Shown here piece after piece: positions 7,014-12,714 of a stretch of DNA of 64,000 bases. Numbering within the stretch: position 1 is the first letter of the stretch; each line of letters begins with the position of its first letter. The notes under the pieces were generated by a model, which saw only the letters and a program-made list of their open reading frames with translations, searched no databases and was not told the DNA's origin. This stretch comes from Acytostelium subglobosum LB1 (taxonomy: Eukaryota; Evosea; Eumycetozoa; Acytosteliales; Acytosteliaceae): positions 125,854-189,853 of the forward strand of contig NW_012236523.1 of the NCBI RefSeq assembly GCF_000787575.1. The letters run 5' to 3'. The translations under genes and the position numbers were made by a program.

Positions 7014-7839
7014 TCATAGTCATAGTCATAGCCGACCCAAGGTCTCAAACAAGACAGACAGACGACAGGATCATTGATGATGGACCCTGGAAGTTCCTCC
7101 CATCCCACTCTCCACTCTCCCTCCCCTTTTGTAAAAACACAATAAACATTACAAAAAAAAAGGAGGGAAAATTTTTTATTTGAAGGTGTGTTTGTGTTTG
7201 CAAGTGAGCGGAAGGAAGAGAGAGCAGGTGAACAATCTAGGCCAGCTTCGAGCGCAACTAGCACTCTCAATCTCACATTCTCACACTCTTTCTGTCACTC
7301 CACTCCCTACCAACTCAACTCAACCCAATTCAATTCAACCTACTGGATACATAAGAGAGAGGTAGTAGTAGTAGTAGGAAAGTGTGTTATAATCATCCAC
7401 CAGTCGCTGTCATTGTCAACAACAGCTGCAGCTACGGCAACAGTCATCATCACCATCAACAACAACAATAACATAACTTGAGTAGTACTTTATACACAGT
7501 AATAGGGTCAGGTGCCTTTCATTGTTTTGGAGAGAGTCAGTCAGTCAGTCAGTCGTCCACACCATCACACCAACAGTTCAGGTTTAGTTCAGTTCAGATC
7601 ATCCATCCATCCATCTATCAATCCACTCCATACATCAAGAACACAACAACGTCGTCACATCCAATATCCAATGTGCCTGTGTATAAGGCTGAAGTATAAG
7701 TGCATGTCATAGATCTAAATAAGTAGATATATAGATATATATAGTATTGTAAAGGTATTCAATCAATCAAACAATCATTCATTCAATCAATCATCCAGTC
7801 AACAAGTTCAATCAATCAAACAAACAATCAAATCTGAGA
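7014..7839. other. Intergenic region between BORCS6-like and E2F genes
   Basis: The stop is followed by a short CATAGT tandem repeat (to about 7030) and a CAATAAAC polyadenylation-type signal near 7140. The 5' leader of E2F (about 7550-7839) is packed with CAATCAATCA, CAGTCAGTCAGTC and CATCCATCCATC repeats. Several frames of 60-100 codons are open here but are repeat-derived and show no family. Confidence 0.55.
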
Positions 7840-10271
7840 ATGAACGACGGTCCAGGCTTAAATAGTATACTCTCATCATTCCCGATGACGAGGAGTAGAG
7901 CTGCCGCACTAAACAACAATAATAATGCAGGTGGAGCAATCAACAACAATAACAATAGTAGCAATGGTAATGGTCGCGGTGTAGTCAGCAATCATGGAAA
8001 CGGAAGATCATCAACAACTACTACCACAACGACCACGATGCACAATAGTAAACGACACTCTGCTCCATCAGCAATATCAACGCCGACATCAACGACAAAG
8101 TCTGGCAATGGAGGTGTGAGCAACCACCACAACCACAACAACAACAATATCAATAGTACGCCAAATGGCAACTCATCACTGTCTGATCTTTACAGTATAT
8201 TACAGAGTAGTTCGGTAACTGGTGGCGCCAGTAGTAGCAGCAACAACAGTAGTATTAATAGCACACCAACTATGCCTGGCAATCATCTTAACAACAACAT
8301 CAACTCATCACTGTCACAAATCCAATCACTGGCATCGCTTCAATCACCATTCTCATCGATGCCCTATATCAATGGCAACAACGGCAACAACAGCAACAAC
8401 ACCAGCTTCAACGGTAGCTCTGGGTCGGGTGGTCACACCTCGTCATCGTCGACCGACAAGAAGATCCAGATGTCTCTGCAACAGCTGCGCGAGTTGAGCA
8501 ACTCCAATGTGGCCAGGAGTCCGGCGGCCTCCTTGTCGGCATCCAATGGATCGTCCAAAAACACTACACCAGCGTCATCGCAGGAGGTCTCTTCACAAGA
8601 GTCTACCATGGCAGCGGCAGCGGCGCCGCCGGCAACCACCGGCCGCGGCAGAGGCAGGAAGAAGAAGGATTCGAACGGTGCCAGCGAGGGCGCCCCAACC
8701 ACCACAACCACCTCTACATCATCCACTACAACTAAGACTACGAATGGAGGCACCAACAAGCGCACGAGGAAGGGTACGGCCGCGCCCAAGACAACTGGCA
8801 CACGATCAAGGGCAAAGAGCGCGGTGGTACATGACGAAGACGAAGAAGAGTCTGAGGAGGAGGAAGAAGACGACAGTCCACCAGCATCAGGAACAAAATC
8901 AAACAAGAAGCAGAAGCCTGGTAACTATCTGGCATTCGCCAACACAGCTCACTCACGAATCTCGACTGACCCAATCAATCAACATCCATCCATCCATTAT
9001 AGACAAAGCATCAAGATATGACAACTCACTTGTGATGCTGACAAAGAAGTTTGTGGATCTGGTTCAAAAGTCACCGTATGGCATCTTGGACTTGAAGGCA
9101 GCAGCTCAATCGATTGAGATCACCAAGCGACGTATATACGATGTGACCTGTGTGCTGGAAGGCGTTGGCCTTATTGAAAAGAGCTCAAAGAACCAGGTGC
9201 AGTGGCGAGGCGTCGACTCACACGTCCACAACAACATCGACCTGTTGGCCAGCAGCAACAACGAGGCACTCAAGATGGAGGTCAAGAAGCTCACCGAGAA
9301 GGAGGCCGGCATCGACTCCTCACTCAAGATTGTCCAGAAGAACATCCAACAAATCATTCATGAGGCTGCCACATCAAAGTATGTTGTGACATAGACAAAG
9401 TCCACGTGCCCGATAATGGCCTTGACTAACCTGGAATCATTCCAATCAATCAATTATAGGCTGTTCTTTGTAACATATGACGACTTGAGAGAAATAGAGC
9501 AGCTGAAGAACGACACATTGATCGCGATCAAAGCGCCAGCTGGCACGAAACTCGAGGTGCCAGACCCAGACGAGGGAATGATCATGCCCAACAGACGCTA
9601 CCAGATCTATCTAAACAATGAGAACAGCGACCCTATCGACGTCTTCTTGCTCAGTCATAATCAGGTGTCGGACGAGCCGTCCAACCCCGGCCTGAACAAC
9701 AGCGACAACAGCAACGACGCAATCTCCATCCTAGAACAACCGATTACCACCACTAGCCAGCCCAGCAGCAGTAGCGTTGGCACGGCGCTCATACCTGCCT
9801 TTGGATCACCGATCCGAACGACATCACATTCATCATCACAACCTCAACTCTCAACTGTACAGATCAACTCACTTCACAGCTTCCAAACGACGCCGACCAC
9901 CTATTGGGAACCAAACTCAACAGTGGCCGCCTATTCACCATTTGACACCTATCATCACCCGCAACAACAACAACAGCAACAGCAACAACAGCAACATCAA
10001 ACGACTGTCGCTGGAGTCATCCCATCCTCACAATACTTTGCCGACTCAATCTACGACTCTACCCAATCCGACTATTACTTCATGGACAGTGTCATTGATT
10101 CGGAGGGTATCTCTGAACTGTACACAGACGAGTCATTCTTAAGTAAGCACCCAGACATGTTGTCAATCCATGTGGTATCGATCACTCACTAATATCTCTC
10201 TCCTGCCCATCCATCCATCTTTAGCCCAATCATTCGATGACTTCCAGAATCAATCAACTGATCAGGTTTAA
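7840..10271 (+). CDS. E2F-family transcription factor
   Basis: There are four exons, 7840-8920, 9003-9378, 9460-10142 and 10225-10271 (728 residues). The first about 360 residues are Asn/Ser/Thr-rich with acidic and basic patches. The E2F winged-helix DNA-binding domain spans the exon 1/2 junction and exon 2: [19 protein letters not shown], then [20 protein letters not shown] (the RRIYDV recognition helix), then [20 protein letters not shown] leucine-rich dimerisation helix follows. Exon 3 carries the marked-box-like [20 protein letters not shown] and [15 protein letters not shown] stretches. A Gln tract lies at 9961-9995. The last exon gives 15 acidic/polar residues, where an Rb-binding tail would sit, but I cannot confirm that motif. 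It probably acts with a DP partner at cell-cycle promoters. It is convergent with the dihydroxyacetone kinase. Confidence 0.93.
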
Positions 10272-10275
10272 TAAA
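10270..10275 (+). promoter_or_regulatory. AATAAA polyadenylation signal overlapping the E2F stop codon
   Basis: The TAA stop at 10269-10271 is immediately followed by TAAACC, so the hexamer begins inside the stop codon. If used, the 3' UTR would be only tens of bases long. The convergent kinase gene has its own signal (TTTATT on the plus strand near 10333). Confidence 0.5.
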
Positions 10276-10372
10276 CCTGTCGTGTCGACGACAACTGCAA
10301 TATCATCACAATGTCATAGCATCTCGCGAGTACTTTATTACCAATCCAGTCCAGTCTGGTCCAGTCCACAGG

Positions 10373-12714
10373 TTAGACAAGATGGAATGTTACGACGTAG
10401 AGCTTATTCTCGTTGGGATATATCTCGCTGATCACACGCTTCAACTCGTCAAGTGTCATGTTCTCTTGTTTGGCATGATGTTCATTCAATTGATCAAATC
10501 GTACGGATAAGATTGATTCAACTTGGATACGGCATATTGGTTTGCCATCTGCAGGCTGTCCATGTGGATATACACGAAGTGGATAATTAGTTGGAATGTG
10601 CTTTGCTTCATCAAAATCACGAATAGTGATCGTCTTTGCGCCAGACAATATATCCGGCATGAACCTTGGGTAGAAGGTGATCGATGTATCAGGATCGTGA
10701 TGATGATGAGTTTGGTCCTGTGGAACAAGTTTGATTGATTGGAAGATGACACTAATAGCGCATGCACCTGGATCCATGCAATCCTTTGATCGATCACCAA
10801 GATATGAGGCACGGCCTTGGTTGGCCCTCATTCCAACTGTCGATTGAGCGCCCTGGTGCGCAGCCTCAGCCGAGGCTTCAAGAATCTGTTTGATGTTGAG
10901 CTGTGTGTCGTTGGACATGCGAACGATGGTGTCAATGGCGGGGATCAAAGCATCAAGCATTGTACAATCACCAATCTTTGCACCTCCAAGTTGTTGAATG
11001 GCCAAGTATCCCTCACGCAATGCATAGGCCCATTGTTGTCTGGTGATTGGCTCATTGGGTGCCTTGCCTTGATGAGATTGGAATATAGATGTTGCCAACT
11101 TCATAAAGAAAACAGCGTAGAATGGACCTGATGAGCCACCTGCAGTCTCTTGAAGTATATGTGATATCTTTAGCAATGCATAACATGGTCTGTCGAATGG
11201 AATGATGTCCACCAGCTTCAATACATTGTTGGCGCATCGCTCCAGTGTTATACCAAGATCACCATCGCCAACCTTAGAGTCCAAATCAGTCAATATGTTT
11301 GAGTTCTCCTGCAATGCCTTGCACACATGCTCAAGGATACTCTTGATCATCATTGCTGTTGACTTATCCACAACAACCTGTTTGTATTTATCATCTGTTC
11401 ATTCATTCATTCAATATTGTTAGTTGTGGCGATGGATTGATCATTGATGTGTCACATACATATGTGTTGGTTTGGGTCTGGCAACTCATTGTGTTGTGTC
11501 TTGTTCTTTCCAAGAGGGATAAGTCCTTGTCCATGGTATGCACGTGGCTTAGATACACTGTTAACAGGCCATCCCTGTGCATTGGTTGGATAGTCAATGC
11601 TAATAGAGTGAATGAATCAGTGAGTGTTCCATCACATATTATTCCATGACAAGGATGCGTACCATTCAATAATATCATTATCGCTTGACATTATACTGAT
11701 GCTGATGCCAGACATGTCTAGAGCGGTCATTAGTGTGCCATTGATCAGACGATCAATGATGTATCCTTTGGATTGAAGTAGACGAACGGTCTCCCCTACC
11801 ACAACATTCATCTCCATCTGTGTTGTTGATCCAAGGTTATTCACCATCACTACCAATCTCTTTCCAACACCATAATGTTGACTGGCATTTGGTGCATTCT
11901 CCAATATGTACTCAACTATATGTCTCTGTTTGATTGAATGAGTGATTGAATGATAGAGTGAGTGGGATGATCCCATCCCGCCAATGCTGACGATCGCTAA
12001 ACTTACAACAACATTATGACAACCTGTTAGCTTCTCTCTTTTGATACCTGGCTCACCATGGATACCAAGTCCAAACTCAAGTTCATCGTCGCCAAGTTCA
12101 AAGTTGGGCCTGCCAACAGCTGGAACAGTGCAGCTGGATAAGGAGACACCCATTGAGTTGAGAGTCGGAAGGAGTTGATGTGCCTTGCCAATCAGTTGGT
12201 CAAGGGCCATTCCACGTTGCGCATAACTACCTAGTATCTTGTTGACCAGCACCGTACCAGCAATGCCACGACGTTTGGACGAGTGGATGGTGGCCACATC
12301 ATCGCCTACCACCAGCATCTCCACTCGAAGGCCATCATTGCGAGCCATCTCTGCAGCAATTCCAAAGTTTAGACGATCGCCCGTGTAGTTCATGACGATC
12401 AGCAGACATCCGGGTGCTCCAGTGACAGCACGAATGGCGGCCAACACCTGTGATGGCGAGGGCGATGTGAACACATCACCAATGACCGCTGCATCCAACA
12501 TTCCAACACCTATGAATCCTGCATGCGCTGGTTCATGTCCCGACCCACCACCGCATATCAACGCCACCTTTTTATCCTTCTCCTTCTCTTGTCTTGACCT
12601 TTCCAAAACCATAACATTAGCATTATCAATCTTTGTCAACAATTCATTCGAGTCCATCATCGCATCCATCATCTCATGTATAACATTATTTGGATCATTT
12701 ATCAATTTCTTCAT
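10373..12714 (-). CDS. Dihydroxyacetone kinase (DhaK-DhaL) fused to a C-terminal ASCH/YqfB-type domain
   Basis: There are four exons, 12714-12007, 11925-11663, 11599-11460 and 11394-10373 (710 residues). The DhaK domain (about 1-330) shows ICGGGSGHEPAHAGFIG and GLGIHGEPGI, whose His forms the hemiaminal bond with the ketone substrate in this family, then IDYPTNAQGWP. The DhaL domain (about 380-595) shows LDSKVGDGDLG, the Asp cluster that binds Mg-ATP, and ETAGGSSGPFYA. It should phosphorylate dihydroxyacetone, and related animal enzymes also cyclise FAD. The same uninterrupted exon continues after a His-rich linker into residues 609-710. These read ITFYPRFMPDILSGAKTITI, then LNEHHAKQENMTLDELK and EIYPN, which is an ASCH domain of the bacterial YqfB type (N4-acetylcytidine amidohydrolase). 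The Lys, Thr and Glu positions of that enzyme family appear conserved. The first intron is 81 nt, in frame and stop-free. Confidence 0.93.

What the first reader, a model, noticed from the sequence alone, without database searches (positions are those of the whole stretch)
10373..10681. Dihydroxyacetone kinase fused in one reading frame to a YqfB-type ASCH domain
The exon coding the DhaL domain continues without stop or intron into about 102 residues that match the bacterial ASCH protein YqfB along its whole length. The Lys-x-x-Thr (AKTIT) and Glu (QENMTL) positions that correspond to that enzyme's catalytic residues are kept. I know of no DhaK-DhaL-ASCH protein. It would couple a triose/FMN-forming kinase to N4-acetylcytidine hydrolysis or RNA-nucleoside salvage. 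The join is seen directly; the coupled function is inference.
Basis: partly seen in the sequence, partly recalled or inferred. Interest (0 to 1): 0.75.

Follow-up and report, generated by a model that had tools for sequence, protein, structure and literature searches.

The report
Slime-mould kinase fused to bacterial ac4C hydrolase
In the social amoeba Acytostelium subglobosum the dihydroxyacetone kinase gene carries at its end a complete copy of a small bacterial-type enzyme that removes the acetyl group from the modified RNA building block N4-acetylcytidine, apparently taken up from bacteria and so far seen joined to this kinase only in this species.

Summary
The window is Acytostelium subglobosum LB1. 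A 710-residue spliced gene (minus strand, 12714-10373) encodes Dak1 + Dak2 + ASCH; DhaL and ASCH share one uninterrupted exon, and the public protein (695 aa) is identical from residue 16. The C-terminal domain is specifically YqfB-like: it passes NCBI's equivalog cut-off for N4-acetylcytidine amidohydrolase, keeps all seven residues changed to alanine in E. coli YqfB, and its AlphaFold model matches YqfB crystal structures best. It has no start codon of its own. Six named dictyostelid orthologues, including Heterostelium of the same family, end after DhaL. Named relatives of the domain are gammaproteobacterial; a tree places it among Enterobacterales/Pasteurellaceae rows, with a long branch. 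Best reading: yqfB was acquired from bacteria, joined to the 3' end of the only DAK gene found, and kept as a working ac4C amidohydrolase for nucleoside salvage. Two additions: a second fusion (DUF726-YqfB, unnamed source), and an otherwise invariant DAK lysine (119 of 119 others) that is methionine here. New variant of known parts; transcripts and activity untested.

The parts
12007..12714 (-). Exon 1 of the DAK-ASCH gene: most of DhaK (Dak1)
   Evidence: spliced translation; Pfam Dak1 residues 22-331. ATG at 12714; the public model starts 15 codons later.
11663..11925 (-). Exon 2: most of the rest of DhaK; flanked by introns 12006-11926 and 11662-11600
   Evidence: GT-AG introns; product equals P0001
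11460..11599 (-). Exon 3: end of DhaK and linker to DhaL; followed by intron 11459-11395
   Evidence: same splice in P0001. A second acceptor would also keep the frame open (696 aa).
10373..11394 (-). Exon 4: DhaL (Dak2, about 11275-10733), short linker, ASCH, stop codon 10375-10373
   Evidence: one open frame, no stop, no intron; Pfam Dak2 and ASCH
10376..10687 (-). YqfB-type ASCH domain (residues 607-710)
   Evidence: Pfam PF04266, NCBIfam NF003443 above cut-off; AlphaFold pLDDT 86.5, top fold matches 9kyh/9kyf
10688..10732 (-). Linker between DhaL and ASCH (residues 592-606, KLVPQDQTHHHHDPD); no ATG in it
   Evidence: letters; nearest in-frame Met codons are at 10777 (inside DhaL) and 10660 (inside ASCH)
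12391..12393 (-). ATG (Met108) where 119 of 119 other DAK proteins examined have Lys, just before N/S-Y-x-G-D
10334..10339 (-). AATAAA polyadenylation-like signal starting 34 bases after the stop codon; an ATTAAA lies at 10272; neither motif occurs earlier in exon 4
   Evidence: scan of 11394-10100

Best explanation
A gammaproteobacterial yqfB gene was acquired in the Acytostelium lineage after it split from Heterostelium, and became the C-terminal domain of the dihydroxyacetone kinase by in-frame joining at the 3' end of its gene; it thereby gained a eukaryotic promoter, start codon and 3' end. The domain most likely still works as YqfB does: Thr attacks the acetyl carbonyl of free N4-acetylcytidine (or another N4-acylated cytosine), with Lys as base, Glu as acid and Arg as oxyanion hole, giving cytidine and acetate for pyrimidine salvage. 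The substrate would come from turnover of the cell's own acetylated RNA and from digested bacterial prey. The kinase and hydrolase probably act independently on one chain. Shown: the join, the domain identity, the kept residues, absence in six dictyostelid orthologues' protein models. Inferred: transfer and its direction, activity, substrate source, independence.
For: Equivalog-level match. All 7 residues changed to alanine in PMC6972931 (Lys21, Thr24, Arg26, Asp27, His70, Glu74, Tyr89) are kept, as K29, T32, R34, D35, H82, E86, Y101 of window:10376-10720:-. 23 of 25 columns invariant in 30 relatives and 11 of 12 columns at 80-99% are kept, against 24 of 65 more variable columns equal to the majority, which suggests selection for function. 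The four best structural matches are E. coli YqfB, the first with ac4C. Relatives: 511 stretches of the genome collection; of the 80 kept, 79 bear gammaproteobacterial titles. Tree: query inside a 21-row Enterobacterales/Pasteurellaceae set, support 98/93. Six dictyostelid DAKs without ASCH. No own start codon. One NAT10-type acetyltransferase match and 8 matches to the broad deaminase family PF00383, two with internal stops, in the same genome.
Against: No transcript or enzyme data. The ASCH row has a very long branch (2.27) in an unrooted tree of 108 columns and 48 rows that I chose from 133; in the quick tree of all 133 it sat beside Edwardsiella, which the careful tree does not repeat, so the donor is unsure. 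Two columns invariant in the 30 relatives are changed (Glu to Ala at 57, Phe to Ile at 62 of window:10376-10720:-), and there are four extra residues, one and three, in two places. The 30 relatives were found with this query. Dictyostelid genomes other than this one are not held, so a separate yqfB gene in them is only made unlikely by a word-limited protein search.
Confidence: 0.62

Rival explanations
1. Coupled bifunctional enzyme: kinase/FMN-cyclase and ac4C hydrolysis belong to one process, or the ASCH domain regulates or localises the kinase, for instance by sensing a nucleoside or binding RNA.
For: Both domains are complete and kept on one chain; fusions often join linked functions (general knowledge).
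Against: No DAK match in the held flanks of 80 bacterial yqfB loci, while the same run finds the ASCH match in 80 of 80; no other DAK-ASCH protein seen; PMC9599836 reports no nucleic-acid binding by YqfB-like enzymes (abstract). The full-length model says nothing on geometry: pLDDT under 50 over 582-671 and 680-695, since no other row of its alignment covers the ASCH part.
Confidence: 0.12
2. The kinase half has lost or changed its activity and the protein survives mainly as a carrier for the hydrolase.
For: Lys before the N/S-Y-x-G-D motif is Met here and Lys in 119 of 119 other DAKs; by recall this is Lys104 of E. coli DhaK, which contacts dihydroxyacetone. The protein holds the only Dak1 and Dak2 match found in the genome. 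It misses the dak_ATP equivalog cut-off (540.9 against 574.95).
Against: Substrate His, the three Mg-binding Asp and nearly all other highly conserved columns are kept: 3 of 109 changed, as in Heterostelium (3) and Cavenderia (3), and fewer than in four other dictyostelids (8-12). One base could be an assembly error.
Confidence: 0.15
3. The ASCH domain is an old eukaryotic inheritance (or was gained early in Dictyostelia) and was lost in the other lineages.
For: A second eukaryote-like protein (P0002, DUF726 + YqfB) exists, and a clade of the two is not rejected (AU p 0.125).
Against: The two fall in different supported sets of bacterial rows (98/93 and 99/96); the query is 55% identical to a bacterial row and 43% to P0002; six dictyostelid orthologues lack the domain.
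Confidence: 0.08
4. Gene-model or assembly artefact: two adjacent genes read as one.
For: No transcript could be examined; all evidence comes from one strain's genome.
Against: One exon, one frame, no stop, no ATG at the start of the ASCH domain, polyadenylation-like signals only after it, third-position GC of 0.42 against 0.44 (DhaK) and 0.46 (DhaL), and a contig of 1.1 Mb.
Confidence: 0.03

Closest known systems
E. coli YqfB, N4-acetylcytidine amidohydrolase (NF003443; PDB 1te7, 9kyf, 9kyh)
   Same: Nearly the whole 103-residue protein aligned (residues 5-101), 46-48% identical in the structural matches, all seven alanine-tested residues kept
   Different: YqfB is a free monomer of 103 residues in a bacterium; here it is the C-terminal domain of a eukaryotic kinase, with four extra residues in two places and no start codon of its own
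ATP-dependent dihydroxyacetone kinase / triokinase-FMN cyclase (Citrobacter DAK 1un9, human TKFC)
   Same: DhaK-DhaL order, substrate His and Mg-binding Asp kept
   Different: Extra ASCH domain; Met instead of the Lys before NYTGD; below the NCBI equivalog cut-off for dak_ATP (540.9 against 574.95) though above the subfamily cut-off NF011049 (546.6 against 492)
P0002, DUF726-YqfB protein from an unnamed metagenomic contig
   Same: YqfB domain at the C terminus of a long, eukaryote-like protein
   Different: Different partner (DUF726), other tree position, source organism unknown

Membership tests
N4-acetylcytidine amidohydrolase (YqfB) | Score over NCBI's equivalog cut-off NF003443 | tested here: met
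   112.6 bits (full protein) and 117.6 bits (domain) against 93
N4-acetylcytidine amidohydrolase (YqfB) | Lys21, Thr24, Arg26, Asp27, His70, Glu74, Tyr89 | tested here: met
   7 of 7 present; list and mutant effects from PMC6972931 passages
N4-acetylcytidine amidohydrolase (YqfB) | YqfB fold | tested here: met
   AlphaFold pLDDT 86.5; Foldseek rank 1 9kyh_B, E 7.9e-12, TM 0.74/0.82
N4-acetylcytidine amidohydrolase (YqfB) | Free small monomer of about 103 residues | tested here: not met
   fused to DhaK-DhaL; in 80 bacterial loci the open frame, stop to stop, is 104-187 codons
N4-acetylcytidine amidohydrolase (YqfB) | Hydrolysis of ac4C | not testable with these tools
   needs an enzyme assay
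ATP-dependent dihydroxyacetone kinase | Dak1 and Dak2 domains in this order | tested here: met
   Dak1 22-331, Dak2 411-591; NF011049 546.6 bits against 492
ATP-dependent dihydroxyacetone kinase | Equivalog score TIGR02361 (glycerone kinase) | tested here: not met
   540.9 bits against 574.95; the subunit models TIGR02363 (367.9 against 406.25) and TIGR02365 (138.1 against 138.3) are missed too
ATP-dependent dihydroxyacetone kinase | Covalent His (220/221) and three Mg-binding Asp (380, 385, 387 in Citrobacter) | tested here: met
   H204, D394, D399, D401 of P0001 align with them in 1un9 (positions counted from the alignment; roles from passages)
ATP-dependent dihydroxyacetone kinase | Lys before the N-Y-x-G-D motif | tested here: not met
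   Met here, Lys in 119 of 119 others
ATP-dependent dihydroxyacetone kinase | Triokinase or FMN-cyclase activity | not testable with these tools
   needs an enzyme assay

The most novel reading that the evidence does not exclude
The protein is an ac4C-recycling enzyme of a eukaryote, gained from prey bacteria, riding on a kinase whose sugar site has been altered; the same small bacterial hydrolase has been captured as a C-terminal domain by unrelated eukaryotes at least twice (DAK in Acytostelium, DUF726 in the organism of P0002), because free ac4C from self and prey RNA is a salvage problem for which most eukaryotes have no such enzyme.
Probability: 0.18. Interest if true: 0.72.

Novelty: new variant of a known kind. 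Interest (0 to 1): 0.52.

Why it matters
ac4C is made in eukaryotic RNA by NAT10-type enzymes, while the ac4C nucleoside hydrolase characterised in the papers seen here (YqfB) is bacterial. A eukaryote that has taken one up, fused it to a core metabolic gene and kept its tested catalytic residues gives a tractable case for asking whether eukaryotes need to dispose of free ac4C, and for seeing how a phagotroph domesticates a bacterial gene without building a new promoter.

Tried and rejected
Operon link in bacteria (would favour coupling): tblastn of the DAK part (E 1e-3) against 80 yqfB loci gave nothing. Viral route: one scan of viral contigs, 39 pattern matches, 0 relatives. Fusions in bacteria: stop-to-stop frames of the 80 loci are 104-187 codons and those of the 15 positive genomes are 104-133, so none is large. 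Geometry of the two active sites: full-length model unusable in the ASCH part. A mixed alignment of DAKs and short ASCH rows misplaced the ASCH rows and was not used. Recent contamination: rejected because of the in-frame join, introns upstream and similar composition. Literature for the role of the DhaK lysine: two searches gave no usable open paper (only the first 10 of 120 papers were listed, and passages of PMC4661931 do not name it). Transcript evidence: passages and section 18 of the genome paper PMC4334915 tell how gene models used cDNA and ESTs but not this gene. Papers seen: passages of PMC6972931, PMC6429413, PMC4661931; passages and abstract of PMC9599836; others as search listings.

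Full report
What is there. The window is part of the Acytostelium subglobosum LB1 genome: residues 16-710 of the spliced gene equal the public protein SAMD00019534_054620 (P0001), and the window lies in a 30.7 Mb assembly. On the minus strand, four exons (12714-12007, 11925-11663, 11599-11460, 11394-10373) give 710 residues. Pfam finds Dak1, Dak2 and ASCH in that order.

Is the C-terminal part really YqfB. Yes, by four tests. It passes the NCBI equivalog cut-off for N4-acetylcytidine aminohydrolase (117.6 bits for the domain, cut-off 93). It matches E. coli YqfB over residues 5-101 of 103 (E 1.1e-22). It keeps all seven residues that were changed to alanine in E. coli YqfB: Lys21, Thr24 and Arg26 variants were inactive, Glu74 100-1000 fold slower, His70 and Tyr89 weaker; the passages seen give no value for Asp27 (PMC6972931; alignment). 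Its AlphaFold model (pLDDT 86.5) matches the crystal structures of YqfB with and without ac4C best. Of 25 columns invariant in 30 relatives it keeps 23; of 12 at 80-99% it keeps 11; at 65 more variable columns it equals the majority in 24. The 30 relatives were found with this query, so they lean towards it.

Is the join real. The ASCH domain has no start codon of its own: the nearest in-frame ATGs lie at 10777, inside DhaL, and at 10660, after the first strand of the ASCH fold. In a scan of 11394-10100 the polyadenylation-like motifs AATAAA (10339) and ATTAAA (10272) occur only after the ASCH stop codon. Third-position GC is 0.44, 0.46 and 0.42 in DhaK, DhaL and ASCH, and 0.36 in the DhaK-DhaL linker. 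I could not examine transcripts.

Who else has it. A search with the ASCH region in proteins of about 390-1240 residues gave 2 hits among 43 candidates: P0001 itself, and P0002, a 789-residue protein of an unnamed metagenomic source with DUF726 and a YqfB domain. A search with the DAK region scored 7995 proteins and listed 120; only P0001 among the 120 carries ASCH (the other 7875 were not shown). The six named dictyostelid orthologues (Heterostelium album, Dictyostelium purpureum, Polysphondylium violaceum, Cavenderia fasciculata, D. firmibasis, D. discoideum) end soon after DhaL and have no ASCH match at E 0.01. These are protein models; their genomes are not held, so an ASCH stretch missed by annotation is not excluded. 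Heterostelium belongs to the same family, Acytosteliaceae. In the open literature searched, 'dihydroxyacetone kinase' with 'ASCH domain' gives 0 papers, and none of the 10 papers listed of 40 holds both an ASCH/YqfB and a dictyostelid term.

Where the domain comes from. Stand-alone relatives (51 of 52 candidates) carry gammaproteobacterial genus names where an organism is given. In the genome collection 511 stretches encode a relative; the 80 best were kept, 79 with gammaproteobacterial titles (class partly by recall) and one titled Chryseobacterium (L067), which may be a mislabelled contig. Of 299 Pseudomonadota genomes searched, 15 have the family, one of them the centre, which was chosen because it has it. 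In a 48-row tree the query lies inside a 21-row set of Enterobacterales, Pasteurellaceae and unnamed rows (98/93), and P0002 inside a 23-row set of Vibrionaceae, other marine families, two Pasteurellaceae and unnamed rows (99/96), so two captures look likelier than one; but the branches are long, the tree is unrooted, I chose the rows from 133, and one clade of the two is not rejected (AU p 0.125). An earlier 133-row quick tree put the query next to Edwardsiella, which the careful tree does not repeat; the donor is therefore not named.

How it most likely works. The domain should hydrolyse free ac4C and other N4-acylated cytosines to cytidine or cytosine and the acid, as YqfB does, with no need for the kinase. 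The genome has one NAT10-type acetyltransferase match, so ac4C-bearing RNA of its own is expected, and 8 matches to the broad deaminase family PF00383, two of them with internal stops, which do not by themselves prove a cytidine deaminase. Dictyostelids also digest bacterial RNA (general knowledge). All this is inference. PMC9599836 (abstract) reports no nucleic-acid binding and places these enzymes in pyrimidine salvage. I see no evidence for coupling with triose or FMN metabolism: no DAK match in 80 bacterial yqfB neighbourhoods.

The kinase. His and Mg-binding Asp are kept. Of 109 columns at least 99% conserved in 111 background DAKs, 3 deviate here, as in Heterostelium (3) and Cavenderia (3), against 8 in D. 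purpureum, 10 in P. violaceum, 11 in D. discoideum and 12 in D. firmibasis; two plant rows were left out of the background. One of the three is striking: Met108 stands where 119 of 119 other DAKs examined have Lys. By recall this is Lys104 of E. coli DhaK, a residue touching the substrate; no open paper seen here confirms its role. It is the only DAK in the genome as far as an exon-wise search tells. It may be an altered sugar site or a one-base assembly error.

Verdict. Real at the level of the genome, so far seen in one species, mechanistically readable, not a new kind of system. The coupling story has no support; the acquisition and domestication story, and a direct test of ac4C hydrolysis by a eukaryotic protein, are what make it worth following.

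Noticed in passing
12391-12393 (minus strand): The codon for an otherwise invariant DhaK lysine (119 of 119 other DAKs) reads ATG, Met; either an altered substrate site in the only DAK found in this genome or a one-base assembly error.
   Followed up: partly
protein P0002 (not in the window): A 789-residue protein of unnamed metagenomic origin joins DUF726 (PF05277) to a complete YqfB domain: a second fusion of the same bacterial enzyme to a eukaryote-like protein.
   Followed up: partly
9005-10189 (plus strand): The neighbouring, tail-to-tail gene encodes an E2F transcription factor (E2F_TDP winged helix and E2F CC-MB domain); an Asn/Ser/Thr-rich open frame lies just upstream (7753-9021) and may be its N-terminal part.
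   Followed up: partly
proteins P0061 and P0062: D. firmibasis and D. discoideum DAKs have changed the R-L-N of the conserved NYTGDRLNFG motif (GDIGSFS, GDNGSFS), unlike the other dictyostelids compared.
   Followed up: no
L067: A yqfB locus among enterobacterial relatives sits in a record titled Chryseobacterium sp. 18061; perhaps a mislabelled or mixed assembly.
   Followed up: no
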